Shown in pieces: positions 18,071 through 64,000 of a DNA stretch of 64,000 bases. The stretch covers positions 176,023-240,022 of the forward strand of contig PLCM01000029.1 of NCBI GenBank assembly GCA_003134765.1, in the 5' to 3' direction. Position numbers and translations under genes: made by a program. Source of the DNA: Spartobacteria bacterium (lineage in GTDB: Bacteria; Verrucomicrobiota; Verrucomicrobiia; Chthoniobacterales; UBA10450). Position 1 is the first letter of the stretch; each line of letters opens with the position of its first letter. The notes under the pieces were generated by a model. The model worked only from the letters and a program-made list of their open reading frames with translations. It searched no databases and was not told the origin of the DNA.

Positions 18071-21000
18071 CTACTGCAAATTGTAAACCTCGATCAAACC
18101 GATGCCGGTGCCGTTGTTCACGCCCCGAAGAACCGCGGTGTAATTTCCCGGAACGAGCGTGCGCACGATCGCCGATTCCAAATCGTTGTTCGGTGGGATC
18201 GTGCTCGCTTGAATGTCGTCCTGCTGGACATCTTTCCAATTGTCGTCTGTCGCGATTGTCGTTCCGTTGCCATCGTGCAATTCCAGGATCGGGTCCTGGA
18301 GCGTTCCGCTCACCGGCACCGATGGGCCGAGGCCGCGCACAATCACCTTCGCGGCGCCGCCGCCCGTTCCTCCGACGATGAATCCGCCGATCATGGCGTT
18401 ATCGCCCGTGTCTACAAATCCACGGGTGCTGATGTTCGCCAGCTTCGAGTTCGCGGCCTGGTTCAGGTCGTAAACTTCCACCACCCCAATGCCGGTCGTT
18501 TGATTCTTGCCCGCGAGAATCGCCGTGTATGCGCCGGGATTCAAAGTGGCCACCAGCGCGGATTCCAAGTCGTTGTTCGGCGGAATCGTTGTGGCGCGGA
18601 TCGTGGCTTCCTGAGATTGCCCGGTTTGATCGTCGGTCTTCCAATTGTCGTTCGTGGCGAGCGTGGAACTTCCCTGATGCAATTCCAGAGTCGTGTCCCC
18701 CAGCGCACCAGGAACGCCGACGCTGGTGAGCGAAGGACCGAGCCCGCGAATAATGACCTTCTTCGGATCGGTGCCGGTGATGATAAAACCGGCGATGAGA
18801 ACGTTGTTGCCCGTTAACACGCGCATCCGCGTCGAGATATTCAGAAGCTGATCGGGTGGCTTCGTTTGGAAATTGGAAAGCACGAGATGATTATCGCTGT
18901 AGGTCGCGATGAAAGAGCCGGCGCCGTCGGTTGTCGGGAACCGGCTTCCATTGGGCGCGTTGATAAATGCGCCCGTGATCGGCGGGCCGGCGGTGAGAAC
19001 GGTGAAGCTGTCGCCGGGCCCCGGCACGAACCCGTTGATCAAACTCACGTCGAGCGTTCCGCCGAAAGTAGCCGAGCCGCTTACGTTCATCGTGTCGAAT
19101 TCTCCCGCCGTATTATTGCGAATGACCATCGAGTAGTGCGCGTCGGCGCCGAGCGCGAGATTGCCGTTGATGGTCATGTTGTCCGGCCCGGGAATCAAAT
19201 AACTGCCCGGAACGACGATGATTCCGGCTCCGCTAAGATTGACAGTGCCGCCGCCGCCGGTGCCGGTCGGAGCTATCGTACCCCGCTGCACGTTGACGTT
19301 GCCATTGATCGTGCCGCCCCGGTGAATGATGCCGCCCTGGATCAGGACGCTGTCCGCCGTCATGACGCTGTCTCCGAGAGATGTCTCACCGCCGGTTTGG
19401 ATATAACTGTGGCCGCCGGCCACGCTGAAAACTTGCGAAGGATCGAAGTTCGAGATAAATATCGCGCCCGCGTTGGTGAAATCCGTGGGCGCGGCAAAAG
19501 ACTCGCCGATCAGTGAGAAGGAGCCCGACTTCGTGTTGTCGACGAAATTCCGCAACCCATCGTTGCTCGCTTGATCAACGATCTTTGCCCCGGCGCCGAG
19601 CGTAAGGTCGGCGGCGTTGTGGACGATATCGGCGCCGTTGAACCGGAGCGTTCCGGTCGCGGACGCATTGGAAAAACTCCCGAACACACGAAACACCCCG
19701 CCTGTTAATGTCCTGGTCGCGGGATCGAGATTCGTGAGCGGGCCGTTTATGGTGAAAGCAGTCGGGAGACTTTGCCCATTGACACTCAGACTGCCGTCGT
19801 TGGTGAAGGCGCCGGTGGAGCTGAAATTGTGGTCGGTGAAACTCACGACGCCGGCCGCGAGGTTATGGGCGAAGTTGCGGAACGCATCGAGACCATTCTG
19901 ATCGACGATCTTGGCGGTGGGAGAGGTGAGACTAATCGAGCTGGCGTTGTTGACTATGTCAGCGCCGTTGAACCGGAAGATGACATTCGCGGTGGCGGAT
20001 TGAAAGGGTTGCAGGCCGATGTTCCCCCCGCTTAACGTTCGTGTCGCGGGGTCGAAGTTCGTGAGCGCGCCGGTGACCGTGAAGCTGGTATCGAGTCCGT
20101 AGTCGGAGAGACCGACGCTGCCGTTGATGGTCAGGTCTCCCCCAGTCACGAAATCCAGGGCCCCCACGCTCAGGCTCGCGCCGGGCCCGATGGCGGCGAG
20201 ATGGCGCAACCCATCATTTCCAACTTCGTCGATGATACGACAATTTGAGCCGATGAGACTAATGCTGGTGTTGGTGCCTCCCAGGGTGACGATATCAGCG
20301 CCGTTGAATTGCACTGTGGCCGCTGGTCCCTGCGAAAAGAGAGTCAATCGCGTCATACTCAAGGTGTTTCCCGAGAAATTGGTGAAATGGCCTAACGAAA
20401 GGATCGCATCGGCGCCGCCCGCCCGGGTTTGGACGGTAAACCCGGGAGTCTCGGTGGAATTGTCCCCGGTCTGATTCTGCAAAGAATTGTCGGTGGTGGT
20501 GCCTGTTACCGTCAGGAGGTTTGCACCACCCAATGTTGAGAAATCATTGTCGGTCAGGCCGGCATCGATCAGCGTCAGGTTAGAGACGGTCGCGGAAATA
20601 TCGAGCGTCGCGGCTCCGACGCGCCGGGTGATGATCCGGTCCTCGAAGGTCAGTTTACCGCTTACAGTCAACCCCATGATCGTCACGTCGAAGAAGTTGT
20701 TCCCGGCGTTGTTTGGCACTACGTGCGCAGACACCCAGTGATTAGAGTCGCTCCATGGGCCGGTCGCGTCCGTCCCCGTCCCGTTGCCCGCGAAGGTCTC
20801 GGCAGTGGTTGTCGATCCCGCCTTGAGGTTACAGATGAACTGAAGGCTGTCGGCATAGCCATCGTTGGAATTGCCGGAGATGCGCGTCATCGTCAGCGTG
20901 ATCACGACCCGGTTTGTATTCACCGGCACAATTCCGCTGCCGTGTCGCAGGAGCAGACCCGTGGCGTTGCCGCGGTCTTTCGCCGTGACGTGACCCACAG

Positions 21001-21463
21001 TGGCGATGCCGAGGCTCGACGTGCCATTGAAAAACGTCGCGCTGAGCCGGGCGTTGTCGTTGTCCGTTTGGTATCCTCCGAAGTAACCAAAAAGATCAAA
21101 AATTACATTACCCTGGTTGATGTCTGCCGCATTCGCGGAGAGGTCGATGTTTTGGGTCGCCGTGCTGACCGCGGCGCCGTTGCCGCCGGCGAAGAAATTA
21201 TTGCCGCGATCCGACGGTCCGGGATCACCGGGCCCTGGATACCCATTCCCAGCGCTATAGGGAATCACCGTGAACGCACTGCTGGTCGTCCAATTTGATA
21301 CTGAAACATGCGCGCCGGTTGGCGAACCAGCGTCGGCGTCGCCATTTCCGTTCACGATCAAGTTGACGCCGTACGAGACGGCACCCGCGCGCTGCTGGGT
21401 AAGAACCAGGAGTGCAAGCACCGCTACGATCGCAGTCAGCAATCGATGACGGGCGACATGCAT
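18071..21463 (-). CDS. Large secreted adhesin-like protein with C-terminal tandem module
   Basis: From the ATG at 21463 (AGGAG 11 bases upstream) the protein has 1130 residues. A longer frame to 21979 lacks coding character. It starts with a signal peptide (TAIVAVLALLVLTQQRAGA), then a jelly-roll-like segment (NLIVNGNGDADAG...). Several repeats of about 110 residues follow, containing RFNGADIV, AKIVDQ and GLRNF. Next is an autotransporter-type strand region (GSYLIPGPDNMTINGNLALG). The last 265 residues form the two-unit module shared with five other proteins here (unit starts LLNISTRMRVLTGNN and LANISTRGFVDTGDN). No C-terminal beta-barrel, LPxTG or PEP-CTERM tail is present. Probably exported to the cell surface or medium; function unknown. 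Confidence 0.85.
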   Translation of the reverse strand: MHVARHRLLTAIVAVLALLVLTQQRAGAVSYGVNLIVNGNGDADAGSPTGAHVSVSNWTTSSAFTVIPYSAGNGYPGPGDPGPSDRGNNFFAGGNGAAVSTATQNIDLSANAADINQGNVIFDLFGYFGGYQTDNDNARLSATFFNGTSSLGIATVGHVTAKDRGNATGLLLRHGSGIVPVNTNRVVITLTMTRISGNSNDGYADSLQFICNLKAGSTTTAETFAGNGTGTDATGPWSDSNHWVSAHVVPNNAGNNFFDVTIMGLTVSGKLTFEDRIITRRVGAATLDISATVSNLTLIDAGLTDNDFSTLGGANLLTVTGTTTDNSLQNQTGDNSTETPGFTVQTRAGGADAILSLGHFTNFSGNTLSMTRLTLFSQGPAATVQFNGADIVTLGGTNTSISLIGSNCRIIDEVGNDGLRHLAAIGPGASLSVGALDFVTGGDLTINGSVGLSDYGLDTSFTVTGALTNFDPATRTLSGGNIGLQPFQSATANVIFRFNGADIVNNASSISLTSPTAKIVDQNGLDAFRNFAHNLAAGVVSFTDHNFSSTGAFTNDGSLSVNGQSLPTAFTINGPLTNLDPATRTLTGGVFRVFGSFSNASATGTLRFNGADIVHNAADLTLGAGAKIVDQASNDGLRNFVDNTKSGSFSLIGESFAAPTDFTNAGAIFISNFDPSQVFSVAGGHSYIQTGGETSLGDSVMTADSVLIQGGIIHRGGTINGNVNVQRGTIAPTGTGGGGTVNLSGAGIIVVPGSYLIPGPDNMTINGNLALGADAHYSMVIRNNTAGEFDTMNVSGSATFGGTLDVSLINGFVPGPGDSFTVLTAGPPITGAFINAPNGSRFPTTDGAGSFIATYSDNHLVLSNFQTKPPDQLLNISTRMRVLTGNNVLIAGFIITGTDPKKVIIRGLGPSLTSVGVPGALGDTTLELHQGSSTLATNDNWKTDDQTGQSQEATIRATTIPPNNDLESALVATLNPGAYTAILAGKNQTTGIGVVEVYDLNQAANSKLANISTRGFVDTGDNAMIGGFIVGGTGGGAAKVIVRGLGPSVPVSGTLQDPILELHDGNGTTIATDDNWKDVQQDDIQASTIPPNNDLESAIVRTLVPGNYTAVLRGVNNGTGIGLIEVYNLQ

Positions 21464-25134: not shown

Positions 25135-25150
25135 TCGCGAATCCATTCAA

Positions 25151-35040: not shown

Positions 35041-35069
35041 ATTGGTCTGCCAAATCTAGCGACCGCCGC

Positions 35070-35128
35070 GGAGGGACGCCCTCCGTGGCGTTCCATTATT
35101 TTAGGGACGGGACAGAGCCCGTCCCTCC
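35070..35128. repeat. Inverted repeat, GGAGGGACG family
   Basis: The element starts GGAGGGACGCC and ends CCGTCCCTCC. It holds two adjacent hairpins with different tops (GCCCTCCGTGGC and GGGACAGAGCCC). The right hairpin is almost identical to the left hairpin of the copy at 42857-42938 read on the other strand. It lies just before the start of the Amuc_1100-like gene, where it could attenuate expression between operon genes. Confidence 0.8.
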
Positions 35129-35137
35129 AAGTTTCGT

Positions 35138-36064: not shown

Positions 36065-36074
36065 AAGCGATTCT

Positions 36075-36228
36075 GGGGAGCGCACGCGCCCTCGCGTGCT
36101 GGTTGCGGCGCCTCGCCGCAACGAATTTGTTTTTGACAATTGGAACTTTCCAGACGCACGAAACGTCAGCGAAAAAGTTCGCGAAGGCGACGCGCCTTCG
36201 CCAACACGCGAGGGCGCGTGCGCTCCCC
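36075..36228. repeat. Nested inverted repeat, GGGGAGCGCA family
   Basis: The outer arms (36075-36098, 36205-36228) are perfect 24-base complements starting GGGGAGCGCA. Inside are two hairpins, TTGCGGCG/CGCCGCAA (36103-36121) and CGAAGGCG/CGCCTTCG (36182-36200), with an 60-base spacer. The plan equals that of 16743-16847. It separates two genes of the pilus locus. Confidence 0.9.
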
Positions 36229-36242
36229 AGACTGATACCCAC

Positions 36243-37181: not shown

Positions 37182-37205
37182 GGCCGAGCGTCGACCGACG
37201 TCGAC

Positions 37206-37315
37206 GAGCGGCGGATTTCCAACCCCCGAGCTGCAACGCGGCGAAGCGGCCACTTTAGTTGTCTTGGGCGTCGCGCCCAAAAAGTCTAGCGCACGCGATT
37301 TGGAAATCGCCGCTC
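37206..37315. repeat. Inverted repeat with inner hairpin before the secretin gene
   Basis: GAGCGGCGGATTTCCAA (37206-37222) mirrors TTGGAAATCGCCGCTC (37300-37315) except for one extra base. Inside lies TTGGGCG-TCG-CGCCCAA (37265-37281). It ends 19 bases ahead of the secretin start and would form a strong structure in the leader. Confidence 0.8.
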
Positions 37316-37334
37316 CTGGTTAGGAACGGAACCT

Positions 37335-43685: not shown

Positions 43686-46600
43686 CTATGGCAGAGCGAA
43701 CACTTCGACGAGTCCGACGCCGGTCCCGCCGTTCACTCCTTGCGCGATCGCGGTGTAAGATCCCGGGGCCAAGGTCGCGATGATAGCTGACTCCGCAGGA
43801 TTACTCGGAGCCAGTCCGCTATTCTGGATGGCGGCCGACTGATCGCTGGTAATGATCCCGCCGAGCTGCGTCGTCTGCCAGTCATCGTTGGCCGCCAAAG
43901 TGCCATTGGCGTCATGAAGCGCGAGCTGCGGATTGGCGAGCGCGTTATTGATCCCGAAGGGGATTAAGGAAGGACCAGTGGCGCGGATGAGTACCCTCGA
44001 GGACTGTCCGACGACAATAAAGCCGCCGATCATGACGTTGTCTCCGGTCTGGATAAATCCGCGAGTACTGATGTTCGCCAGGATCGCTCCATTGTTGGGG
44101 CTCAAGTCATACACTTCCACGGTTGCCACGCCTTGAGTGCCGCCGACTCCCTGCACGATCGCGGTGTAGGTCCCCGCGGGGAGCGTCGCGATGATGGCCG
44201 GCTCCGCCGGATCGGCTGGCGCGGCTCCGCTGTTCTGGATCGCCGCGACTTGATCGGAGGTAATCACTCCCCCGAGCTGGGTGGTTTGCCAATTATCGTT
44301 GGTCGCGATGGTGTTGCTCGCATCGTGGAGTTCCAGTTGCGGATTGCCCATCGCGCCGGGAAGACCAAATGCTGTCAACGAAGGACCCGCAGAACGGATG
44401 AGGAGTGTCTTGGAGGCGTTCCCCTGGATGATGAAGCCGGCGAACAAGACGTTATTTCCGGTTCCCACTTGCAACCGTGTCGAAATGTTACCCAGGCTAC
44501 CGGGTGTAGGTGTAGGTGTGGCGCCGGGTGTAGCGGTTGGAGTAGGTGTAGCTGTAGGTGTAGGAGTCGGTGAAGGTAAGGCACCGCCAAATTCAAACGC
44601 GCCGATGTCACTTACGCCCACGCGGGAGGCTCCCCGCTGATCGGTCGGGGGTGCGTCACCGTTGAACCCTGAATCGATGGCGGGACTTAGTGCGAGCAAC
44701 CCGATGGTATCGGTTGGCCCTCCGTTATTCGCGAGAGAACCAACCTTCGGATCGAGTGGATTTGTCACTGTCCCCGTCTTATCGCCTATGGCAGGAAAAC
44801 CAGTGCTGCCATCCGTTTTGCCAATAAGATTGAATCCCTGGGAACTAAATGGGCCGGAAACATCCGGCCCCCCAGTGCCGGTTCCGTTGTTGCCGGCGAT
44901 GAGTGTGTTCTCTGGCTTCATCGTACCGCCGGTGGTGCTGCGGTGAATTATGCCGCCGCCTTCTCCCGTGCCGTCAGGCCCGGCCGTGTGGCCAGTGCCG
45001 CCGGGTCCACCGACGGCAGTGTTCCCGGTAAAGGTGCAATTCAGCGACATGCATGTGCCTGCGTTAAAAATCGCTCCGCCGGAGCCATTGCCCCCGGGGC
45101 CGCCTTGGCCACTGCTCAGAAGAAGATTGTGGCCGCCGCGACCGCCCTGAGCGGTGTTGCCGCTAAACGTGCAGTTTCGCAGCGTAAGACTGTATCCAGG
45201 GCTGTAAATCCCTCCGCCTTCTCCTGCGCCCCCCGTGGCCGTGGGATTATTGGCATTCGTCGGCCAGCTCCCACCGATGGCAGAGTTACCGCTCACCGTG
45301 CAACCGATCATCGTCAACGCGTAAACGTTAACGATGCCGCCCCCTTGCGCAGCGTTACCTGGAGCGCTGGTGGTAGAGTTGTTGACGATCGCACAATCGG
45401 TAAGCGTCGTGTCGTCCAGGTTGAAAATGGCGGTTCCTGCGTGGGTAAAGGTGAGGCCCGAAATCGCGACCGTTGGATGACCAGAGCCAAAGATTGACAA
45501 GATCTCACTGCCAAAGTTTGCGTCCAGCGTCAGCACTCGCGCGCCCGGTCCCCGCAGGGTCATCGCATTGGTTATGTCTAATGCACCCTGGGTGAGCGTG
45601 ATGGTGCCCCTCACCTGAGGCGCGAACTGGATCGTTAGCCCGCCGGCCGCATTCGCGGTGTTAATCGCATCGCGCAGCGTGCAACGGGTTTCGCCACACG
45701 CGTCGTCGGTGTCATCCAGGGTCGTGTTCACCGTGAGAGTCGTGCCCGTTTGCGGGTGATCCAGCTCGTAGGCCCCGATATCGACATGGCTCCCGATTTG
45801 CCGCGGGAAGCCGCGCTCGTCACTCGTTAGGTTATCCGGCGCGCCCAGCACGCTGTCGTCCCCGCCCTCGATGGCCAGGCTGCCTTCCAGCAACGCCATC
45901 GTCGGCGCCGGGCCGCCGTTACTTTGCGCTGGACCGAGGTGAGGATCGATCGGGGTCGTGCTCGTGCCGGTGAAGTCGCTCGCAATCCAGCCGCGGCCAC
46001 TATCGGTTTGCCCGATCAGGTTGTGGCCCTTGGAGGTAACCGCGGAAAACCCACTGTCAGTGGCGACGTCAGGACTGTTGGCAGCACTATTCAGCGCGAC
46101 GATCGTGTTCTGGATCACGACCGAGCTACCGGTCTCGTAGCTGATGCCGCCACCGCGCCCGGCGCCCGAATTCAGCGTGTTGGCACTGATCGTATCGTTG
46201 ATCAACGTCAACGGGCCAGCCTTTGTGCTATGAATGCCGCCACCGTGGCTTTCAGCTGCGTTGTTGGCAACCGTGCTATTGATGACGGTCAGCGTTGCCT
46301 CGTTCTCTATTGCGCCGCCGTCATAAGATGAATTTTGATAGAAGGTGCTGTTGATCACCGTCACCGTGCCGGGGTTGCTGTTGAAGAGGGCCCCCCCGCC
46401 GCTACCGCTACCCCCGTCGGCAGCGTTCTGGCTTAGGTAGCAGTTAGTCAGGGTTAATGTGCTTCGCACGTTGCGTATGGCCCCGCCGGCTGAGCCGTTC
46501 TGGTTGCTCAAGAGGTTGCCGGTGAAAATGCAATTCGTCAGCGCGACGGTGCTCGTGGCGCTCAGATTGCTGGACCAGGTGACCATGGCGCCGCCCAGCG

Positions 46601-47334: not shown

Positions 47335-50300
47335 CTACGGGATTTTATATACTGCCACGACTCCCACACCAGTCCCACCGCTGACTCCTTGCGCGATCGC
47401 AGTGTAACTTCCCGGCGCCAAAGTCGCGATGATCGCTGACTCGGCGGGGTTGCTCGGAGCCAGCCCGCTATTCTGGATGGCGGCGGACTGGTCGCTGGTG
47501 ATAATCCCGCCCAACTGCGTCGTCTGCCAATCATCGTTCCCCGCCAGCGTGCCACTGGCGTCGTGGAGCTCGAGCCGCGGATTGGTGAGCGCGTTATTGA
47601 TCCCGAGCGGGATCAGGGAGGGACCGGTGGCGAGGACGATCACCCTCGAAGCCTGATTAACGATAATAAAGCCGGCGATCATGACGTTATCTCCAGTCTG
47701 GATAAATCCCCGGGTGCTGATGTTCGCGAGGGTCGCGCCGGTGTTCGGGCTTAAGTCATACACTTCCACGGTCGCTACGCCCTGGGTGCCGCCCACTCCC
47801 TGCACGATCGCTGTGTAGCTTCCCGCGGACAGGGTCGCGATGATCGCCGGCTCCGCCGGATCGGCTGGCGCAACTCCGCTGTTCTGGATCGCCGCGACTT
47901 GATCGGAAGTAATCACTCCCCCGAGCTGGGTCGTTTGCCAATTGTCGTTGGTCCCAATCGTGTTGTTGGCATCGTGCAATTCCAGCTGCGGATTGCCCAA
48001 TGCGCCCGGCACGCCGAAGGATGCCAGCGAAGGGCCGGCGGAACGGATGAGCACGGTCTTAGGGGCGTTCCCCTGGATGATGAAGCCGGCGAACAGGACG
48101 TTGTTCCCAGTCCCCACTTGCAGCCGCGTCGAAACGTTACCAAGGCTGCCCGGCGTAGGGGTAGGTGTCGGCGCGGGGCTTACTACAACCGTCTCGCTCG
48201 CGTCACCACACGCAGTGGCAAAGGAGGCACTGTGGGTGTCACCGCTGTAGGTCACGACAAATCGATAGGTCCCGGCCGCAGTCGGAGTAAACGCTGCCGA
48301 GCTATAGGTCCCATCCCCATTCACTTTGGAAACAGAACTGAAGGCAACCGGGCCGCCGCAGGTAGAGTCGTCAGGTCCGTAGACCTTGAACGTAATGAGG
48401 CCAGTGGGGCTTACTCCGCCAGAGAGGGTAGCGGTGTCGGAGATATTTCCGCCGACGGTGGTCGCGGCCGAAGCTGTCCCCGAGATCCCCGTGACTACAA
48501 AAAACGCATTCCGGACCGATTCGATGACGCTCTCCGAGCCGTTTTGGTATCCGCTGCGATAGAAACCGCGAGCGCGGATGTAGATGTTCTGTCCGGCCGG
48601 CAAATTCAAGCCAGTCAGGATCCAGTTATTGCCGGAGGCTGTGCCGCTGCCGAATGCCGTGCCGCTGCCAAGAGGGGTGTAGTTCACATTGTCGGTGGAA
48701 GACTCAAAGGTAACGCGCGTGAAGTGCGGGCTGGCGCCGCCGAGCGCCCAGCTAATGGCGCTTGGTTGCGTCACGGCCAGGTTTTGCAAAGCGGCCGTGT
48801 CGTTGCTCAAACGAGCGAACTGATTGCGCTCCTGTCCGCCGATACCGTCGAAAAAGCCGCCCACTAAAATCTTGCCGTCCGCCTGCACCGCGATCGAAAA
48901 GACGCTATTGTTCGCGCTCGGGTCGAAAGCCGTGTCGAGTGTGCCGTCCGAGAACAGCCGGGCGATGTGGTTGCGCGTGACCGCTCCCCCGCCATTGGGC
49001 GAGAGCGTTGAGAAAAAGCCGCCCACTAAAATCTTGCCGTCCGCCTGCACCACGATTGAAGCGACCTCATCATTCGCGTTCGGGTCGAAAGCGGTGTCGA
49101 GCGTGGCGTCCGAGAACAGCCGGGCGATGTAGTTGCGCGTGACCGCTCCCCCACCATTGGGCGAGAGCGTTGTAAAAGCGCCGCCCGCTAAAATCCTGCC
49201 GTCCGCCTGCACCGCGATTGAAAAGACGCTACTGTTCGCGTTGGGGTCGAACGAATCTGGCGCTCCGGTTGTCGCATCGAGCCGGGCGATGCGGTTGCGC
49301 GTGACTGCTCCCCCACCATTGGGCGAGAGCATTGTAAAAGCGCCGCCCGCTAAAATCTTGCCGTCCGCCTGCAATGCGATTGAAAAGACGCTACTGTTCG
49401 CGTTGGGGTCGAACGAATCTGGCGCTCCGGTTGTCGCATCGAGCCGGGCGATGCGGTTGTGCGTGACTGCTCCCCCACCATTGGGCGAGAGCGTTGTAAA
49501 AGCGCCGCCCGCTAAAATCTTGCCGTCCGCCTGTACCGCGATTGCATAGACATCACTGTTCGCATTCGGGTTGAATGAATCCGCCGAGCCGGTCGTGGCA
49601 TCGAGCCGGGCGATCCGGTTGCGCGCCGCTCCGCCGATGCTGATCGTCCCGTTGCCATGGTCGTTGAAAATCCCGCAGGCTAAAATTTTTCCGTCGGCCT
49701 GCACCGCGATTGCATCTACTTCATTGTTCGCGTTCGGGTCGAAAATGAGGTCGAGCGTCCCATCCGTGTTCAGGCGTGCGATGTTGTTGCGCGGCACGCC
49801 CAAAACGGTGGTGAAATTGCCGCCGATGAGAATCTTCCCGTCCGGCTGCACAGCGGTAGCAATAACAGAGCTGCCGACGGTGTTGAGATTGAGCGTCACG
49901 TCGAGTCTGCCATCTGTTTCCAGCCGCGCGAGGCGGTTGCGCGTCACCGCCGCTCCCCCATTCGGCGAGAGCGTGGTAAAAAGGCCTGCCGCTAGTACCT
50001 TGCCGTCCGCCTGCACCGCGATGGCATTGACACCGTTGCTGGCATTCGGGTTGAAGGAATCAGCCAAGCCGGCAGTAGTAGGATCGAGCCGGGCGATGTC
50101 ATTGCGCGCCTGTCCGCCGATGCTGGTAAAAGAGCCGCCTACTAAAATCTTGCCGTCCGCCTGCACCGCGATGGCATTGACAATATTGTTCGCGTTCGGG
50201 TTGAATGTATCAGCCGCTCCGGTGGCGCCATCGAGCCGGGCGATCCGGTTGAGTGCCGCTCCGCCGATGCCCGTGAAAACCCCGCCCGCTAAAATCTTGC

Positions 50301-51120
50301 CATCGGCCTGCACCGCGATGGCACGGACCTCACTGTTCGCGTTGGGATTGAATGAATCAGCCAGGCCAGTCGTGGGATCGAGACGGGCGATGAAGTTGCG
50401 CGACTGCCCGCCGATCGTTGGCGTCGAAAAACTGAACTGGCCGCCCACTAAAATTTTGCCGTCCGCCTGCACCACGATGGCACGGACTCTATTGTTCGCA
50501 TTCGGGTCCCACGAATCCGCCGCTCCGGCGGTGGGATCGAGCCGGGCGATGGAATTGCGGATCTTGCCGCCAATAGAGGGCGTGCCGTTGCCAAAGTCGG
50601 TGAAATCCCCGCCCACTAAAATCTTGCCGTCCGCCTGCACCGCGATGGCATAGACATCCAGGTTCGCGTTCGGGTCGAAGGAAGGATCAGCCGTTCCGGT
50701 GGCGGGATCGAGCCGGGCGATGTGGTTGCGTGTCGCTCCGCCGATGGTGGGCGTTCCGTTGGATTGGCTGAAAGCGCCGCCCACCAAAATATTGCCGTTA
50801 GCCTCCACCACGATGGCATTGATAGCTCCATTCGCGTTCGGATTGAATGTGACGTCGAGCGTGCCGTCCGGGTTCAGCCGGGCAATGTGATTGCGTGTCA
50901 CCGCCGCTCCGCCGTTGGGCGAGAGCGTGGTAAAATCGCCGCCGATCAGAATCTTGCCGTCCGGCTGCACCACGACGGCCCGGACCGTGCCGTTGACGTT
51001 CGGATCGAATCCATCGAGCGCGGATTGCCCGCGCACTGCTACCGCGGTGCCCGTCAGCAGCAGGGCAACGGAAAAAAATAGAAGCGTAGCTTTGTTGCTG
51101 GGTTTGGATGTTGTTTTCAT
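47335..51120 (-). CDS. Giant secreted delta-60 repeat (beta-propeller) protein with Ig-like domain and C-terminal tandem module
   Basis: 1261 residues, with a signal peptide (KATLLFFSVALLLTGTAVAV). About 14 delta-60 repeats follow, each with the motif A-(I/V)-QADGKILxGGxF and FDPNAN (residues about 40-840), predicted to form one or two propellers. Next is a Ser/Thr-rich fibronectin/Ig-like part (STDNVNYTPLGSGTAFGSGT) and an Ig-like domain with SPTGLITFKVYGPDDSTCGG. A Pro/Thr linker leads to the two-unit C-terminal module. Three consecutive repeats are nearly identical in DNA. The module agrees closely with that of the downstream gene. Confidence 0.88.
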   Translation of the reverse strand: MKTTSKPSNKATLLFFSVALLLTGTAVAVRGQSALDGFDPNVNGTVRAVVVQPDGKILIGGDFTTLSPNGGAAVTRNHIARLNPDGTLDVTFNPNANGAINAIVVEANGNILVGGAFSQSNGTPTIGGATRNHIARLDPATGTADPSFDPNANLDVYAIAVQADGKILVGGDFTDFGNGTPSIGGKIRNSIARLDPTAGAADSWDPNANNRVRAIVVQADGKILVGGQFSFSTPTIGGQSRNFIARLDPTTGLADSFNPNANSEVRAIAVQADGKILAGGVFTGIGGAALNRIARLDGATGAADTFNPNANNIVNAIAVQADGKILVGGSFTSIGGQARNDIARLDPTTAGLADSFNPNASNGVNAIAVQADGKVLAAGLFTTLSPNGGAAVTRNRLARLETDGRLDVTLNLNTVGSSVIATAVQPDGKILIGGNFTTVLGVPRNNIARLNTDGTLDLIFDPNANNEVDAIAVQADGKILACGIFNDHGNGTISIGGAARNRIARLDATTGSADSFNPNANSDVYAIAVQADGKILAGGAFTTLSPNGGGAVTHNRIARLDATTGAPDSFDPNANSSVFSIALQADGKILAGGAFTMLSPNGGGAVTRNRIARLDATTGAPDSFDPNANSSVFSIAVQADGRILAGGAFTTLSPNGGGAVTRNYIARLFSDATLDTAFDPNANDEVASIVVQADGKILVGGFFSTLSPNGGGAVTRNHIARLFSDGTLDTAFDPSANNSVFSIAVQADGKILVGGFFDGIGGQERNQFARLSNDTAALQNLAVTQPSAISWALGGASPHFTRVTFESSTDNVNYTPLGSGTAFGSGTASGNNWILTGLNLPAGQNIYIRARGFYRSGYQNGSESVIESVRNAFFVVTGISGTASAATTVGGNISDTATLSGGVSPTGLITFKVYGPDDSTCGGPVAFSSVSKVNGDGTYSSAAFTPTAAGTYRFVVTYSGDTHSASFATACGDASETVVVSPAPTPTPTPGSLGNVSTRLQVGTGNNVLFAGFIIQGNAPKTVLIRSAGPSLASFGVPGALGNPQLELHDANNTIGTNDNWQTTQLGGVITSDQVAAIQNSGVAPADPAEPAIIATLSAGSYTAIVQGVGGTQGVATVEVYDLSPNTGATLANISTRGFIQTGDNVMIAGFIIVNQASRVIVLATGPSLIPLGINNALTNPRLELHDASGTLAGNDDWQTTQLGGIITSDQSAAIQNSGLAPSNPAESAIIATLAPGSYTAIAQGVSGGTGVGVVAVYKIP
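49169..49600. repeat. 162-bp tandem repeat within the delta-60 gene
   Basis: The word TTGTAAAAGCGCCGCCCGC starts at 49170, 49332 and 49494, a period of 162 bases (54 codons). The three units are almost identical, including the FDPNAN codons, while the outer repeats of the gene are more diverged. This indicates recent unit duplication. Confidence 0.85.
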
Positions 51121-51167: not shown

Positions 51168-54100
51168 TTACTGAAGGAAGTAAACCTGGACGACACCAAT
51201 GCCAGTAGCCTCCGGTTTGCCTCGTACCTGGGCGGTGTATTGCCCGGGTTGGAGAGTGATGAGGAAGGCCGCTTCCAGATCGTTGGTCGGTTGCAGACCC
51301 GTGGCTTCGAGCTCCGCTTGCTGGCTGCTGCCGTCGGTCCGGATTTTCCAGTCGTCGTTCTCCACCACGATGGCGCCGTTATTGTCCCTGAGCTGGAGAG
51401 TAGTATCCGCCAGCGCGTTGGTAATGCCGAAGGCGCTCAAAGATGGTCCGATCGCGCGGACTACGGCTCTGACTGATCCATTCTGGATAATAAAACCCGC
51501 AATCATGAGTTTATCGCCCGGTTGAATAAGACCTCTCGTCGCGATGTTAGCGAGCTTCGCCGGCGAACCTGCGCTCAAGTCGTAAGCGTCCACCACGCCT
51601 GTGCCCACGGTGTTACCCGCGCCACGCACGACCGCCGTGTAACTGCCCGGAGCCAGGTTCGCGATGATGGCCGATTCCAGGTCGTTACTCGGTGCAAGCT
51701 GGCTCGCGCTGATGTCTGCGACTTGATCGGCGGTAATGATGCCGCCCACCTGAGTGGTTCTCCAGTTATCGTTGATCGCGATGATCGCATTGGTCGCATC
51801 GTGAATTTCAAGCGTGGGATCAGCCAGGGCGTCGGTTATTCCGAAAGGGGCGAGCGATGGGCCAATCGCGCGCACGATGATTTTCTTGGTGGAACCAACC
51901 GGCCCTTGCACTATGAAACCCTCGATCAACACGTTGTCGCCTGTGCCGACCGGGAGGCGTGTAGAAACGTTACCGACCAAGCCAGGCGAGGGTGTAGGTG
52001 AGGCGGTAGGAGTAGCCGTCGGAGTAGCGGTGGGTATAGGTGTAGGTGTGGGTGTGGGAACGGGCGAAACTGTGACGGCCGCGTTAGGATCGCTGCACGA
52101 AGTAGTGACAGGGTTGTTGTTAACGTCTCCGCTGTAGCTGGCGACGAAGCGATAGGTGCCTACCGCCGTGGGGGTGAAGCCGGAGCTGTAGTTTCCGTTG
52201 CCATTGTTGACGGCCACGGTGGAACTAAAGGCCGGCGCGGCGCCGCAGGTGCCATCGTTAGGGCCGTAGGCTTTGAAGGTAATGCTCCCCGTGGGCGAAT
52301 ATCCACTTGCGAGAATAGCTATGTCGTTGATCGGGTTACCGAGCGTGGTGGCTGGTGAAGCCTGGCTGCTAAGCGTTGGCGTCGCCTGGCTCACCATCAC
52401 GTAGCTGGACGCACTCGGGATGCCGTTGGCGAACACCGTGACCATGGCCGGACCAAGCGGAAAGCCGGTGACGGGGTTCGAAGTAAAGGCGGTGCCCGAC
52501 CACCCCGCGGTAGGGTCAACGGGGAGAAAGGTGGTTTGGGTGGTCTCAATGTTGCGCAACTGAGCGATTGGGTAGCTGGTCGAAGAATCCTGGGTGTTGC
52601 CGCCCGAGGCTTGCGAGATGCCCTGGAAGAGGGAGCCGGTCAGCGCGAGGCTACCGCCCAGTGGGAGGATGGAAGGCGCTGTCGCAATCTGCGGCTGCCA
52701 AAGAGACCGGAGGTATCCCAGCCCGCCCAGGTATAATTCGACACTCTGCAAATACTCGGCGTTCGCCCCGCCGGTGACCAACACGATGTCATCCGAAACC
52801 AGGGTCGCCGTGTGACCCTGGCGTGCGATGTTGAGGTTGCCCGCGGACGTCCATTTACCGCTTCCCGGGTCGTATATTTCTGCACTCGCAAGCGGGCCAG
52901 TATTGTTTCCTTGCCCGCATGCTATCAGCACTTTTCCGTTGGGAAGTAATGTAGCCACTGTTAAATCGCGTGCGGCGGCGAGACTCCCCGTTACCGTCCA
53001 CGTGCCGCTTGCTGGATCGTACAGTTCCGCACTCGCGAGCTCACCGGACCCCTCGTCGGCCACGTTTACAGACCCTCCTGCGATCAACACCTTTCCGTTG
53101 GACAGAAGCGTCGCCGTGTGATTGTAACGCGCGGTGTTCAGGTTATTCGTTACTGTCCAGTTCCCGGTTGCCGGGTCATACACTTCCGCACTCGCGGAAA
53201 CATTCAAACTACGGTCATATCCTCCTGCGACCAGGACCTTACCGTTTGACAGCAAGGTCGCGGTGTGATTCTGGCGCGCGGTGTTCAGGTTGTTCGTCGC
53301 CGTCCAGTTCCCGTTCGTCGGGTTATACAATTCCGCGCTTATGGAGATTGTTTGGAGGCTGCTATCCCTTCCCGCCGCGACGAGCACCTGACCGTTGGGG
53401 AGCAATGTCGCCGTGTGGTCAGCGCGGGCGGCGCCGAGGTTGGAGGTAGTCGCCCTCCATGTCCCGCTGGCGGGATCGTAGAGTTCCGCGCTCGCAAGAA
53501 CGGCGTTGCTGTTATCGAACCCTCCGGCGACGAGAACCTTGCCGTTGGGCAGCGATGTCGCCGTGTGACTATAGCGTGCGGTGTTGAGGTTGCCCGTGGC
53601 CGTCCATTGCTCTTGCGCCACATCGAAAAGCTCCCCGCTCGCCAGAGCGCCGCTGCCGTTTATCCCGCCTGCGACCAGCACATGGCCATTGGCCAGCATT
53701 GTTGCGGTGTGCTCCTCGCGTGGTGCTGCCATCACCGGCGGACTCCCCCAGGCACCGCTACTCGCAGGATCGTACAGCTCGGCGCTGGTCAGATATTTGG
53801 CGCTCTGAATTTTTTGAAAACCGTCGAAACCAGCGGAGAAGAGTATGCTGCCGGTGGGTAGCAGTGTCGCGGTCTGATTAGATCGGGGGGTCACCAGATC
53901 GGCGGTTGCGGTCCAGGCGCCGTTGGCTCCCTGGCCCGGACTGTAAAGCTCCGCGCTGGCTAAAGAATTAGTGCCGTCAGTTCCTCCCGCCACCAGCACC
54001 ATCCCGTTAGGCAACAAGGTCGCCGTGTGATTGTAACGGGAATTGACCGGATTGGGGGTGGTATTCCATGTCCCGCTCGCCGGATTATAAAGCTCCGCTG

Positions 54101-54911
54101 TTCCCACGGCGCCGCCGTTTTGTCCATCTGCTACGAGTACCTTGCCGCTGGGAAGCAACGTCGCGGTGTGAAAATAACGGGCGTTGCCGAGATTCCCAGT
54201 AAACGCCCACATCCCGCTCGCCGGATCATAAAGCTCAGCGGTGTTTAACGTGCCGCCCGTAACGTTGCCTTGTCCTCCCACGACCAGCACCTTGCCATTA
54301 GAGAGCAGGGTCGCCGTGTGATTATCCCGGGCCGTGACGAGGCTGCCGGTTGCCGTCCAGGTCCCGGTCACCGGATCGTAGAGTTCCGCAGTGCCTTGAA
54401 AGCCGTTGGTGGCATATCCCCCTGCGACCAGCACCTTGCCGTTAGGGAGCAAGGTGGCGGTGTGGGCATAGCGTGCGCTCGCAAGACTGCCGGTCGCTTT
54501 CCATTTTCCCGTCGCTGGATCGTAGAGTTCCGCGGTGGTGAGAACGGTATTACTGGCGCCAACTCCTCCGGTGACGAGCACCGCGCCGTTGGGCAACATC
54601 GTCGCGGTGTGCGCCTCGCGTGGAGTGACCAGATTGCCCGTCGCCGCCCAAGTCCCGATCAACGGATCGTAGAGCTCCGTGGTGCCCACGATGCTGGGGT
54701 TAGCTCCTCCGGCGACCAACACCTTCCCGTTTTGCAACAAGGTAGTGGTGTGCAGAGTGCGTCCCTGCGCCAGGTTGCCGGTGCTGGAGAAAGTAAAAGG
54801 CGCCCCGGCAACAGCAGGAGGCGCGCACAAGAGCGCGGCTGCGGTAGCAAGGAGGACAAAAGCGGCCCAAAGGTTGGCCTTCCCGTAATGACAGAGGTCA
54901 TTTGTGGCCAT
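51168..54911 (-). CDS. Giant secreted kelch-repeat protein with Ig-like domain and C-terminal tandem module
   Basis: 1247 residues from the ATG at 54911. The first residues (MATNDLCHYGKANLWAAFVL) include a signal peptide core (AFVLLATAAALLCAPPAVAG). About 14 kelch units follow with HTATLLPNGKVLVAGG and AELYDPATGxW, making a beta-propeller or two. Then come a domain with LTGSLFQGISQASGG and VDPTAGWSGTAFTS, an Ig-like domain (SPTGSITFKAYGPNDGTCGA), a Pro/Thr linker and the two-unit C-terminal module. It is a paralogue of the gene at the right edge of the window. Only 47 bases separate its stop from the start of the next minus-strand gene. Confidence 0.88.
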   Translation of the reverse strand: MATNDLCHYGKANLWAAFVLLATAAALLCAPPAVAGAPFTFSSTGNLAQGRTLHTTTLLQNGKVLVAGGANPSIVGTTELYDPLIGTWAATGNLVTPREAHTATMLPNGAVLVTGGVGASNTVLTTAELYDPATGKWKATGSLASARYAHTATLLPNGKVLVAGGYATNGFQGTAELYDPVTGTWTATGSLVTARDNHTATLLSNGKVLVVGGQGNVTGGTLNTAELYDPASGMWAFTGNLGNARYFHTATLLPSGKVLVADGQNGGAVGTAELYNPASGTWNTTPNPVNSRYNHTATLLPNGMVLVAGGTDGTNSLASAELYSPGQGANGAWTATADLVTPRSNQTATLLPTGSILFSAGFDGFQKIQSAKYLTSAELYDPASSGAWGSPPVMAAPREEHTATMLANGHVLVAGGINGSGALASGELFDVAQEQWTATGNLNTARYSHTATSLPNGKVLVAGGFDNSNAVLASAELYDPASGTWRATTSNLGAARADHTATLLPNGQVLVAAGRDSSLQTISISAELYNPTNGNWTATNNLNTARQNHTATLLSNGKVLVAGGYDRSLNVSASAEVYDPATGNWTVTNNLNTARYNHTATLLSNGKVLIAGGSVNVADEGSGELASAELYDPASGTWTVTGSLAAARDLTVATLLPNGKVLIACGQGNNTGPLASAEIYDPGSGKWTSAGNLNIARQGHTATLVSDDIVLVTGGANAEYLQSVELYLGGLGYLRSLWQPQIATAPSILPLGGSLALTGSLFQGISQASGGNTQDSSTSYPIAQLRNIETTQTTFLPVDPTAGWSGTAFTSNPVTGFPLGPAMVTVFANGIPSASSYVMVSQATPTLSSQASPATTLGNPINDIAILASGYSPTGSITFKAYGPNDGTCGAAPAFSSTVAVNNGNGNYSSGFTPTAVGTYRFVASYSGDVNNNPVTTSCSDPNAAVTVSPVPTPTPTPIPTATPTATPTASPTPSPGLVGNVSTRLPVGTGDNVLIEGFIVQGPVGSTKKIIVRAIGPSLAPFGITDALADPTLEIHDATNAIIAINDNWRTTQVGGIITADQVADISASQLAPSNDLESAIIANLAPGSYTAVVRGAGNTVGTGVVDAYDLSAGSPAKLANIATRGLIQPGDKLMIAGFIIQNGSVRAVVRAIGPSLSAFGITNALADTTLQLRDNNGAIVVENDDWKIRTDGSSQQAELEATGLQPTNDLEAAFLITLQPGQYTAQVRGKPEATGIGVVQVYFLQ

Positions 54912-54975: not shown

Positions 54976-56040
54976 CTACTGGAGGAAGTAAACTTGGACG
55001 ACGCCAATCCCAGTCGTCTCCGGTTTGCCTCGCACCTGGGCAGTGTATTGCCCGGGCGGGAGAGAGGCGACGAAGGCCGCTTCCAGATCGTTGGTCGGTT
55101 GCAGACCGGTAGCCTCGAGTTCCGCTTGCTGGCTACTGCCGTCGGAACGGACTTTCCAATCATCGTTCTCGACGACGAGAGTGCCGCTCCCGTCCCTTAG
55201 CTGAAGAGTGGTATCAGCCAAGGCGTTGGGAATGCCAAAGGCTCTCAAGGAAGGTCCTATCGCACGCACCACGGCTCTGACCGGCCCGTTCTGGACAATA
55301 AAGCCCGCGATCATGAGTTTATCGCCCGGTTGAACGAGACCGCGGGTAGCGACGTTAGCCAGGATCGCCGGCGAAGCCGCGCTCAGGTCGTAGGCATCCA
55401 CCACGCCCGTGCCCGCTGTGTTACCCGCGCCGCGCACGACCGCGGTGTAACTGCCCGGAGCGAGGTTCGCGATGATCGCGGACTCGAGGTCGTTAGTGGG
55501 CGCGAGCCCGCTCGAGCTGATCTCCGCGGATTGATCGGCGATGATGAGGCCTCCTACCTGGGTAGTTTTCCAATTATCATTCGTTGCCACTGTCGCGGTG
55601 TTCGCATCATGAATCTCCAAGGTAGGATTGGCCAAAGCATCAGCTATCCCGAAGGGAATGAGCGAAGGCCCAATCGCGCGCACCATGATTTTCTTGACCG
55701 AGCCGGGCGGCCCCTGGACAATGAAGCCCTCGATCAATGCGTTGTCACCCGTGCCGACGGGGAGGCGGGTAGAAACATTGGCGACCAGGCCCGGTATAGC
55801 TGTAAACCAGAAACCGACCTGTATGGAAAACTGCCCGCTGCTGAGATTTGTTCCGGCGGCCGCCTGCCCCACGGTTGCGTCCAGCGTCAGGTTTGCTCCA
55901 TCCCCGCTCGACCCTCCACCGCCGGCAATCACAGAGCGAGAGAGATCGAAGCAGCCGCCACTCTGTGGAAACAAAGCAAGCACAAGCGCGAACGATGCCA
56001 TAAGAAACCGGCGACGACCGGCTGTGATTGAGTTCTTCAC
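54976..56040 (-). CDS. Short secreted protein consisting mainly of the tandem C-terminal module
   Basis: 354 residues with a twin-arginine-like or Sec signal (RRRFLMASFALVLALFPQSG) and a short domain with AGGGGSSGDGANLTLDATVG and a final FSIQVGFW, a pattern common in secreted proteins of this phylum. The two-unit module follows directly (units start at about 92 and 220: ANVSTRLPVGTGDN and ANVATRGLVQPGDK). It has no propeller or helix domain and no PT linker, and so shows the module can stand almost alone. It lies between two larger surface genes. Confidence 0.85.
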   Translation of the reverse strand: MKNSITAGRRRFLMASFALVLALFPQSGGCFDLSRSVIAGGGGSSGDGANLTLDATVGQAAAGTNLSSGQFSIQVGFWFTAIPGLVANVSTRLPVGTGDNALIEGFIVQGPPGSVKKIMVRAIGPSLIPFGIADALANPTLEIHDANTATVATNDNWKTTQVGGLIIADQSAEISSSGLAPTNDLESAIIANLAPGSYTAVVRGAGNTAGTGVVDAYDLSAASPAILANVATRGLVQPGDKLMIAGFIVQNGPVRAVVRAIGPSLRAFGIPNALADTTLQLRDGSGTLVVENDDWKVRSDGSSQQAELEATGLQPTNDLEAAFVASLPPGQYTAQVRGKPETTGIGVVQVYFLQ

Positions 56041-61272: not shown

Positions 61273-61275
61273 GGG

Positions 61276-62010
61276 TTACGTTTGCAACACAGAAATAAAA
61301 TGACGAAGCTCGTCCTCGACATCGCCCGGCGCCGCGACGGTGTTCGCGATTTCCTCGTGTAACAATTCCCGGTAACGATGGCGCAAACGGTGAAATGCCT
61401 GCTTCACCGCGTTCTCTGTCATTCCTAATCCAACGGCAATATCCGCCTGCGACGGACGGCCCGGTTCATCGGCGAGCAGTTCCTTGAGCTGTTCGAACAG
61501 AGCCGCGTTACCGGCAACTCGATATTCGTCCTCGAGACGCCCCAGCACTTGCTCAAGCAACGTCAACGCCCATCGGCGCTCATAAATTTTGTCGGCACTC
61601 AGAGTGTCCGCCGGCTCCAGATCGGCGCGCTCCCGCGCCAGCAACGCTTCGAGGGGAACCAGCGATTGACCTTCTCCTCGCTTCACGGCCATCTCCCGGC
61701 GATGCGCTTTCGCCAGAAAATTCTTGAGCGACACAAGCAGATAGGAACGCAAGCGTCCCTTCTCGCGTCGGACACTGTCGAAATCTCTTCGCTCCAAAAG
61801 CATCGCGAAGAAACCTTGCGTCAGGTCTTGGGCTTCTTCTGGATTATGACCTTGCCGCCTCACAAATCCATAAAGCGGCCACCAATAGGTGCGGCAAAGT
61901 TTTTCCAAAGCCGCTTCCGCTGCCGGAGATCGCTCTTGCGCCGCCAACACTACGCTCCACTGGGTAGTGACAAAGGCGTTTGCCGACCCGGCGCAGTCAT
62001 TTCCGGACAC
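61276..62010 (-). CDS. ECF-family RNA polymerase sigma factor
   Basis: 244 residues with region 2 (YWWPLYGFVRRQGHNPEEAQ, DLTQGFFAMLL), a long linker, and region 4 (SQADIAVGLGMTENAVKQAF, RLRHRYRELL). The linker and C-terminal extension are those of the ECF groups that sit next to Ser/Thr kinases in Planctomycetes and Verrucomicrobia. In such pairs the kinase is thought to control the sigma factor by phosphorylation; no anti-sigma gene is present. Target promoters are unknown. Confidence 0.9.
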   Translation of the reverse strand: MSGNDCAGSANAFVTTQWSVVLAAQERSPAAEAALEKLCRTYWWPLYGFVRRQGHNPEEAQDLTQGFFAMLLERRDFDSVRREKGRLRSYLLVSLKNFLAKAHRREMAVKRGEGQSLVPLEALLARERADLEPADTLSADKIYERRWALTLLEQVLGRLEDEYRVAGNAALFEQLKELLADEPGRPSQADIAVGLGMTENAVKQAFHRLRHRYRELLHEEIANTVAAPGDVEDELRHFISVLQT

Positions 62011-62129: not shown

Positions 62130-64000
62130 CTATTGGAGGAAGTAGACCTGAACAACGCCGATGCCGGTAGATTCGGGTTTGCCTCGCACCTGGGCGGTGT
62201 ATTGCCCGGGTTGGAGGGTGATGAGGACAGCCGCTTCCAGATCGTTGGTCGGTTGGAGGCCCGTGGCTTCGAGTTCCGCTTGCTGACTGCTGCCATCGGT
62301 CCGGACTTTCCAATCGTCGTTCTCCACGACGATGGCGCCGTTCTGGTCCCTCAACTGGAGCGTGGTATCAGGGAGCGCATTGGAGATTCCAAAAGCACTC
62401 AAGGAGGGTCCGATCGCGCGGATCACCGCTCTCACCGGCCCATTCTGCACAATGAATCCGGCGATCATGAGTTTATCGCCCGGTTGGATCAAACCTCGGG
62501 TTGCGACGTTAGCCAGCTTGGCGGGGGAGGCAGGGCTCAGATCGTAGGCATCGACGACGCCGGTGCCAATGGTATTTCCCACGCCACGCACCACTGCGGT
62601 ATAACTGCCCGGAGTAAGATTCGCGATGATGGCCGATTCCAAATCATTACTCGGTGCGAGTTGGCTCGCGCTGATCTCCGCCGATTGATCGCCGGTAATC
62701 AATCCTCCCACCTGAGTCGTTCTCCAGTCGTCGTTTGTCGCGACGGTAGCGCCGCTCGAATCGTGGATCTCCAGGGTGGGATTAGCCAGCGCATCCGTTA
62801 TCCCAAAGGGGGCGAGTGATGGGCCAATCGCGCGCGCGATGATTTTCTTGGTCGAGCCAGCCGGCCCTTGCACGATGAAGCCCTCGATCAGCACGTTATC
62901 ACCCGTGCCGACTGGGAGGCGGGTGGAGACGTTGCCGACCAAGCCAGGTGTAGGCGTAGGTGTTGGTGTAGGTGTGGGTGCCGGGGTCACAACAACCGAC
63001 TCATTCGCGGCGTTGCACGCCCCGGCTATGATGTTGTTGTTCGCATCGCCGTTATAAGTCGCGATCCAGCGATACGTGCCGGACGCTGTCGGCGTGAAGT
63101 TAGCGGACGCGTACGTCCCATTGCCGGCGTTAACCGAGACAGTTGAGGTAAAGATCACGGTGCCTCCGCAGGTAGCGTCGTTCGGTCCGTAGAGAGTGAA
63201 GGTGATCGTTCCCGCAGGATTGAATCCGCCCGCAAGGGTCGCGCTATCCGAGACGCTGCCGCCGAGGGCAACCGGCGCTGAGGCGGTAGTCGTAATGGTG
63301 GGGCTCTTCTTGCTGACCACAACCGATTCGTTGGCATCGTTACACGCGCCGGCTATCGAGTTATTGTTTGTGTCGCCGCTATAGGTTGCCACCCACCGGT
63401 AAGTCCCAGCGGTAGTCGAGGTAAACGAGTCAGAAGTGTAACTCCCGTTGCCAGTCACGTTCTTCGTCGAAGTGAAGACAGCGGTGCTGCCACAGGTTGC
63501 GTCGTCCGGTCCGAATAACTTGAAGGTGATCGTCCCGCTCGGCGTCCCGCCGTTGGCAAGTGTCGCAGTATCCGAAATGCTGCCTCCGACTGGCGTAGTC
63601 GCTGATGCTTGTGTCGTGATTGTCGGAGTTGCCTTCGCTACCACTAGATATTTCGTGTCACTCGGGATGCCGTTGGTAAAGACCGTGACAAGAGCAGGGC
63701 CGAAAGGAAAGCCAGTCACAGGTTTCGAGGTGAAGGCCGTGTCCGACCAGCCAGCGGTCGGGTCCACCAGAAGGAATGCGACCTGACTGCTCTCGAGGCT
63801 GCGGAGTTGGACGATCGGGTAATTGCTCGAGGAATCCTGGAAGTTCCCGCCGGAAGCTTGGGAGATGCCCTGGAAACGCGAGCCGGTGAGCGTCAGGCTG
63901 CTGCCGGACTTCAGCAGGGAAGTGGCCGTGGCAATCTGCGGCTGCCAGTCGGGCCTGAGAAAGCCGAGCCCAATGTCGTACAGTTCCACGCTCGCGAGAG
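62130..64000 (-). CDS. Kelch-type secreted protein with two Ig-like domains and tandem C-terminal module (5' end outside window)
   Basis: The frame is open to the window edge, so the N-terminus is missing. What is present starts with LASVELYDIG-like kelch text, then the domain LTGSRFQGISQASGG with VDPTAGWSDTAFTS, two Ig-like domains (TPSGTITFKLFGPDDATCGS and NPAGTITFTLYGPNDATCGG), a Pro/Thr linker and the two-unit module. It is a close paralogue of the gene at 51168-54911 except for its second Ig domain. It ends 120 bases from the sigma factor start, with nothing recognisable in the gap. Confidence 0.88.
   Translation of the reverse strand, partial: LASVELYDIGLGFLRPDWQPQIATATSLLKSGSSLTLTGSRFQGISQASGGNFQDSSSNYPIVQLRSLESSQVAFLLVDPTAGWSDTAFTSKPVTGFPFGPALVTVFTNGIPSDTKYLVVAKATPTITTQASATTPVGGSISDTATLANGGTPSGTITFKLFGPDDATCGSTAVFTSTKNVTGNGSYTSDSFTSTTAGTYRWVATYSGDTNNNSIAGACNDANESVVVSKKSPTITTTASAPVALGGSVSDSATLAGGFNPAGTITFTLYGPNDATCGGTVIFTSTVSVNAGNGTYASANFTPTASGTYRWIATYNGDANNNIIAGACNAANESVVVTPAPTPTPTPTPTPGLVGNVSTRLPVGTGDNVLIEGFIVQGPAGSTKKIIARAIGPSLAPFGITDALANPTLEIHDSSGATVATNDDWRTTQVGGLITGDQSAEISASQLAPSNDLESAIIANLTPGSYTAVVRGVGNTIGTGVVDAYDLSPASPAKLANVATRGLIQPGDKLMIAGFIVQNGPVRAVIRAIGPSLSAFGISNALPDTTLQLRDQNGAIVVENDDWKVRTDGSSQQAELEATGLQPTNDLEAAVLITLQPGQYTAQVRGKPESTGIGVVQVYFLQ

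What the first reader, a model, noticed from the sequence alone, without database searches (positions are those of the whole stretch)
18071..62945. A two-unit C-terminal module of about 265 residues shared by six otherwise unrelated secreted proteins
Seen: the proteins ending at 18071, 43686, 47335, 51168, 54976 and 62130 all finish with two related repeats of about 130 residues. Shared marks in order are N-(I/V)-(S/A)-TR, G-x-x-x-(D/N)N, GFI, R-x-x-GPSL, (L/I)-x-(L/I)HD, NDxW, P-x-N-x-x-E-(S/P)-AI, PG-x-YTA and TG-x-G-x-x-(D/E)-x-Y-x-L. The parts before it differ completely: jelly-roll, beta-helix, delta-60 propeller, kelch propeller, or nearly nothing. Inference: it is a portable display or retention module, like PEP-CTERM or the T9SS C-terminal domain in placement, though no basic tail, membrane helix or barrel is visible.
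Basis: partly seen in the sequence, partly recalled or inferred. Interest (0 to 1): 0.85.

Follow-up and report, generated by a model that had tools for sequence, protein, structure and literature searches.

The report
Shared end-domain of verrucomicrobial surface proteins
A bacterium of the Verrucomicrobia ends some ninety of its proteins, mostly unrelated otherwise and predicted to be exported, with the same two-part domain that is missing from the two family catalogues searched; the domain is predicted to fold like known substrate-binding domains of secreted enzymes and likely holds its carriers on the cell surface.

Summary
Six proteins end with two related units of about 130 residues. In this genome's fetched stretches 98 frames carry a unit; 86 of 89 complete pairs end 0-4 residues before the stop. 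Carriers are mostly unrelated before the pair (propellers, beta-helices, Ig-like, lipase, ice-binding) and most begin with a signal-peptide-like segment. No Pfam model reaches its cut-off on the window's modules; the nearest NCBIfam model, FDP_fam (DVUA0089), passes in 6 of 10 diverse modules scanned but not in the window's. A confident model (pLDDT 93.5) shows two beta-sandwich units resembling pre-peptidase C-terminal (PPC) and collagen-binding domains. Genomes mostly hold many copies or none: some Chthoniobacterales families and probably Opitutaceae. Between unrelated carriers, silent sites are near saturation while 40-80% of residues stay identical, so the module itself is conserved. Of 11 distinct non-C-terminal cases, 10 lie at the mature N-terminus behind a signal-peptide-like segment. 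That fits a docking domain better than an end-read sorting tag (T9SS, PEP-CTERM). I infer non-covalent surface retention; ligand unknown, function untested.

The parts
18071..21463 (-). carrier gene 1 from the likely Met start (the frame is open to 22006); signal-peptide-like start, no Pfam match
18437..18841 (-). module unit 1 of carrier 1
18074..18436 (-). module unit 2 of carrier 1, ends at the stop codon
43686..47051 (-). carrier gene 2 (NCBIfam choice_anch_Q and CSLREA), signal-peptide-like start, Pro-Thr linker
44076..44489 (-). module unit 1 of carrier 2
43689..44075 (-). module unit 2 of carrier 2
47335..51120 (-). carrier gene 3 (delta-60 / DUF5122 propeller), signal-peptide-like start, Pro-Thr linker
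47725..48138 (-). module unit 1 of carrier 3
47338..47724 (-). module unit 2 of carrier 3
51168..54911 (-). carrier gene 4 (kelch propeller, then an Ig-like stretch below the Pfam cut-off), signal-peptide-like start, Pro-Thr linker
51549..51971 (-). module unit 1 of carrier 4
51171..51548 (-). module unit 2 of carrier 4
54976..56040 (-). carrier gene 5, only 87 residues before the module
55357..55779 (-). module unit 1 of carrier 5 (modelled)
54979..55356 (-). module unit 2 of carrier 5 (modelled)
62130..64000 (-). carrier gene 6, cut by the contig end; related to carrier 4 before the module
62511..62933 (-). module unit 1 of carrier 6
62133..62510 (-). module unit 2 of carrier 6

Best explanation
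The module is a pair of beta-sandwich domains, predicted to fold like PPC and collagenase collagen-binding domains, that likely docks many different predicted exported proteins non-covalently to one common ligand on or around the cell. Shown by sequence: two units of about 130 residues, 8-10 residues apart in 88 of 89 pairs, sit flush with an end of the protein, nearly always the C-terminus, on carriers that mostly share nothing else. Predicted: export by a cleavable signal peptide, and the fold. Inferred: after export the tandem pair binds a shared receptor or polymer of the envelope or matrix and so retains and displays the carrier. Which ligand, and how the carriers pass the outer membrane, is not known.
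Confidence: 0.5

Rival explanations
1. The module is a secretion or sorting signal read by a dedicated outer-membrane machinery, in the manner of the T9SS C-terminal domain, and would be recognised and perhaps removed at the surface.
For: Flush C-terminal position in 86 of 89 pairs; many unrelated carriers; many copies or none in most genomes, even within one genus (G411 with 11 scored copies, seven listed relatives of g155 with none); one of 24 modules exceeds the TIGR04183 T9SS type A cut-off by 0.2 bits.
Against: 10 of 11 distinct exceptions lie at the mature N-terminus, conserved for a DUF1800 protein in two families; SprA in 0 of 18 genomes, without a positive control; C25 peptidase marginal in 2 of 22; exosortase and secretin do not track the module. 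No candidate machinery was found. G411 is a fragmented MAG with 3% contamination, so its copies could be foreign.
Confidence: 0.22
2. The pair is a substrate-binding domain that brings each exported protein to outside material such as protein or polysaccharide of soil, not to the cell.
For: PPC-containing segments and collagenase domains bind substrate (PMC6168687, PMC3327674); fold resemblance.
Against: Carriers are mostly propellers and repeat proteins rather than enzymes in the families listed, and some are almost module only (54976-56040; L045). The same module on carriers of such different kind is hard to explain by one outside substrate, though not excluded.
Confidence: 0.13
3. The pair is a folding or stability tail that would help the carrier fold after export and be cleaved afterwards, as is said of many PPC domains.
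For: [quoted passage not shown] the end domain of Tk-SP is the top structural match.
Against: Some carriers are almost module only, leaving little to stabilise; Pro-Thr linkers in 22 of 98 keep the module apart from its carrier.
Confidence: 0.1

Closest known systems
Tandem collagen-binding domains s3a-s3b of Hathewaya histolytica ColG and other PPC (PF04151) domains
   Different: Sequence stays below the PPC cut-off (best 15.5 of 25.9 bits among 24 modules). Carriers are mostly not peptidases. About a hundred copies in one genome. Ligand unknown.
NCBIfam NF038127, DVUA0089 family (FDP_fam)
   Same: Nearest catalogued family by sequence: matches 21 of 24 modules at E<=1, 6 of 10 whole modules over the 29-bit cut-off, mostly through model positions about 37-111 of 150.
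   Different: The window member scores 24.5 bits, below the cut-off. The model describes neither the tandem pair nor, in most matches, the first third of the unit. No paper naming DVUA0089 was held.
T9SS C-terminal sorting domain (type A, TIGR04183)
   Same: A beta-rich domain flush with the C-terminus of many unrelated exported proteins in one genome (T9SS side recalled).
   Different: Here also at the mature N-terminus; 1 of 24 modules just over the TIGR04183 cut-off; SprA in 0 of 18 genomes, no control rang.
PEP-CTERM / exosortase
   Same: C-terminal placement on many unrelated exported proteins.
   Different: No hydrophobic helix and basic tail: the window's chains end in strands such as VQVYFLQ. 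PEP-CTERM itself has 3 matches in this genome; exosortase is in 214 of 288 genomes while the module is in 14, plus one marginal.

Membership tests
PPC (PF04151) | score at or above the Pfam cut-off of 25.9 bits | tested here: not met
   9 of 24 modules match at E<=1, best E 0.032, 15.5 bits
PPC (PF04151) | beta-sandwich fold of PPC and collagen-binding domains | tested here: met
PPC (PF04151) | C-terminal part of a secreted protein | tested here: met
   86 of 89 pairs C-terminal; signal-peptide rule 60 of 84 against 1 of 53 controls; secretion itself predicted only
DVUA0089 family (NF038127) | score at or above the NCBIfam cut-off of 29 bits | tested here: inconclusive
   6 of 10 diverse modules over it, window member 24.5 bits and under it
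T9SS C-terminal domain | sequence match to the type A profile | tested here: not met
   TIGR04183 matches 2 of 24 modules at E<=1, one of them at 23.2 against a cut-off of 23
T9SS C-terminal domain | T9SS translocon SprA in the same genome | tested here: inconclusive
   0 of 18 genomes, but nothing rang in the control genomes either
T9SS C-terminal domain | always at the C-terminus (recalled) | tested here: not met
   11 distinct exceptions, 10 at the mature N-terminus
PEP-CTERM | PEP motif, hydrophobic helix and basic tail at the end (recalled) | tested here: not met
   the six chain ends show none of them; the genome's PEP-CTERM matches (contigs C25 and C17) are at other places
PEP-CTERM | exosortase presence follows signal presence | tested here: not met
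   exosortase in 214 of 288 genomes, among them all 14 with strong module matches; module absent from the other 200 (one marginal match among them)

The most novel reading that the evidence does not exclude
These Verrucomicrobia run a surface-display system of their own: a tandem beta-sandwich docking module, fused to either end of about a hundred different exported proteins per genome, is recognised by one envelope receptor or polymer and organises much of the cell's outer surface. A lineage that loses the receptor loses all copies.
Probability: 0.3. Interest if true: 0.82.

Novelty: new variant of a known kind. Interest (0 to 1): 0.62.

Why it matters
Thousands of proteins in the public collection carry this domain (7,769 of 7,997 scored candidates at E<=0.001, a lower bound; where the 120 listed rows bear a name it is mostly 'hypothetical protein'), yet neither Pfam nor NCBIfam has a model of the pair. 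Such a model would mark the likely surface proteome of hardly cultured soil Verrucomicrobia at once. If one ligand holds them all, finding it would show how these cells build their surface, and the module could serve to display proteins. Genomes of one genus with eleven scored copies and with none (G411 against G350 and G356; fragmented MAGs, so contamination must be excluded first) and one family with both states make a search for a partner gene possible.

Tried and rejected
Tried without result: (a) Known family: Pfam on six whole proteins and 24 modules and NCBIfam give FDP_fam and weak matches to PPC, Y_Y_Y, Ig_J and GBD_IRG7_N (best E 7.3e-5 in 8 of 24 modules; cut-off not shown for those rows). 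(b) Sequence search of solved structures with the 80-row profile: designed kelch-like repeats through the short stretch 105-137 and weak others; taken as chance because no single stretch of the top entries passes. (c) First structure model from six sequences, pLDDT 72.7, replaced by the 80-row model. (d) Partner genes: exosortase 214 of 288, SprA 0 of 18, secretin TIGR02517 22 of 22 at E<=0.001 but over the cut-off in 1, C25 peptidase 2 of 22 marginal; none tracks the module. (e) Were the two slots fixed once? Within the genome 171 of 178 units have their nearest neighbour in the same slot, but the tree has no clean split (26 misplaced units). Slot models of this genome of 107 first and 105 of 107 second units right in named loci, 15 of 17 and 12 of 17 in two close families, but 22 of 24 and only 6 of 24 in the Opitutaceae-like family. 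Open. (f) Literature: the searches listed no paper that by title or abstract start describes the module; only two papers were opened, and most subscription papers are not held. (g) Recent cassette copying as sole cause of likeness: rejected for most pairs by near-saturated fourfold sites, though the 50 pairs above 80% identity are younger, and two neighbours in L083 (92.5% fourfold identity) look like a recent duplicate. (h) Acidobacteriota: two matches lie on short contigs of MAGs labelled Acidobacteriaceae and Pyrinomonadaceae (L131, L169); contamination is likely but unresolved.

Dropped rows: one search gave 100 frames; two were overlaps of fetched regions, nine more lacked two full units, leaving 89. 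One search used 77 of the 89 (pre-module part of at least 150 residues, module at the C-terminus). Pfam scans of carriers used 85 of 87 parts, since two held unread residues. One search scored 150 of 241 candidates, so the genome total is a lower bound. Frames with fragments only (6 of 123, 1 of 29, 1 of 18) were left out of the position counts. Named loci are not de-duplicated, and L162 and L198 hold the same gene. Signal peptides of the exceptions outside this genome were judged by eye.
Full report
What was checked. The six minus-strand frames were translated. Each ends in two units of about 130 residues that align over their whole length, with 24 invariant columns in twelve units and 64% mean column identity. 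The finding is real at the given places. Two carriers, 51168-54911 and the one ending at 62130, are related before the module too (62.9% over 224 residues). The latter is cut by the contig end, which is the window end.

How far it reaches in this genome. A profile of the twelve units found 150 matches in the window's own genome, the most that were scored out of 241 candidates, in 92 groups. I fetched stretches around the matches and read frames from stop to stop: 100 frames with a unit, 98 after dropping two overlaps, 89 with two complete units. Of the 89, 50 end at the stop codon, 31 one residue before it, three two and two four; three do not end there. The gap between the two profile matches is 8-10 residues in 88 of 89. 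Two further loci appeared with a broader profile (contigs C35 and C39). Of the nine frames without two full units, most are short or cut; one (L057:2688-3950) is a 421-residue frame with a single C-terminal unit.

What it is attached to. Of 2,926 pairs among 77 carriers, all are similar in the module and 212 before it; of the 98 pairs with modules at least 75% identical, 60 show no similarity before the module. Pfam scans of 85 of 87 parts outside the module list kelch, DUF5122, NHL and other propellers, beta-helix, PKD and Ig-like repeats, an ice-binding domain, GDSL lipases, a phosphoesterase and DUF1800, with the 25 commonest families of each scan shown. A Pro-Thr or Pro-Ser repeat lies before 22 of 98 modules. 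A home-made signal-peptide rule fits 72 of 84 frames with a closed 5' end; a stricter one fits 60 of 84, against 1 of 53 internal control stretches and 26 of 137 other frames, with no lipobox among the 60. Export is thus predicted, not tested.

The module is conserved for its own sake. Of 2,713 pairs with unrelated carriers, 2,663 have 40-80% identical residues; their fourfold-degenerate sites agree at 0.350-0.377 on average, against 0.325 expected at random. The 50 pairs above 80% are higher (0.474 and 0.653), so they are younger. Residues are kept while silent sites are almost scrambled. I infer purifying selection on the module whatever its carrier, as expected of a part that meets one common partner.

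Who has it. In an even sample of 288 genomes of the phylum, 15 match, 14 of them strongly: two families of the same order and one other family of the same class. The fifteenth (G157) has no match with a broader profile. In 147 genomes of the order, 21 match, 20 of them with 11 or more of at most 18 scored copies and one with a single copy. Named loci are MAGs labelled Spartobacteria, Chthoniobacterales or Verrucomicrobia, with two exceptions named above.

Position elsewhere and the exceptions. Counting frames with a full unit, the module is C-terminal (12 residues or fewer behind it) in 115 of 117 in the named loci, 24 of 28 in the Opitutaceae-like family and 14 of 17 in the two close families. 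With the three in this genome, and one gene counted twice, there are 11 distinct exceptions. In nine the module begins directly behind a signal-peptide-like segment, in one behind such a segment and a Pro-Thr linker (L212), and in one it is internal, before a hydrophobic segment and basic tail (L189, a weak and divergent match). One exception is a conserved architecture: signal peptide, module, CHRD, DUF1800, in both close families (CHRD in L214 just under its cut-off). Single-unit forms occur in the Opitutaceae-like family (L208, L210).

How it probably works. An end-read tag such as PEP-CTERM or a T9SS signal should not work at the N-terminus, so these exceptions speak for a docking domain that needs a free end of the chain. 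Exosortase is in 214 of 288 genomes and in all 14 strong carriers, secretin in 22 of 22 with and without modules, C25 peptidase marginal in 2 of 22, SprA in 0 of 18 without a positive control. I hold it most likely that the pair binds one envelope or matrix ligand without covalent link and thereby retains its carriers (0.5). A dedicated machinery remains possible (0.22), because copy numbers are close to all or none.

Novelty. A beta-sandwich end domain for exported proteins is a known kind. This family, its usual two-unit build, its use at both ends and its numbers per genome were not found in Pfam, NCBIfam or the papers listed by my searches. I rate it a new variant of a known kind.

Noticed in passing
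window 33289-39980: A PilM-like gene (PF11104), two genes without Pfam match and a TPR-secretin gene (PF00263) lie beside the module gene cluster. Secretins occur in 22 of 22 genomes with and without modules.
   Followed up: partly
L211:1536-4409, L214:698-3604, L215:737-3760 and 5468-8467: A conserved protein with the module at the mature N-terminus, followed by CHRD and DUF1800.
   Followed up: partly
window 56146-58167: Signal-peptide-like start, a long Asn-Ala-Thr repeat, no module and no Pfam match, inside the module gene cluster.
   Followed up: no
window 58411-62010: By eye, a sigma-factor-like gene and a Ser/Thr kinase with a TPR-like rear part lie between carriers 5 and 6; not scanned against a library.
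   Followed up: no
L037, L047, L053:1570-1971, L057:542-898, L086:161-502: Short frames holding one unit or parts of units, possibly remnants of broken or recombined carriers.
   Followed up: no
L048:1-5301 (contig C9): A frame listed as 4,051 residues that ends in the module; only its last 1,767 residues were read.
   Followed up: no
G411 against G350 and G356: Same genus g155: 11 scored modules in one, none in the others. All are fragmented MAGs, so contamination must be excluded.
   Followed up: no
L189:1351-3099: Divergent relative in G169: DUF5122 propeller, pair, then a glycine-serine stretch, hydrophobic segment and basic tail resembling a sorting tail.
   Followed up: no
L131 and L169: Module genes on short contigs of MAGs labelled Acidobacteriaceae and Pyrinomonadaceae; contamination or transfer.
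   Followed up: no
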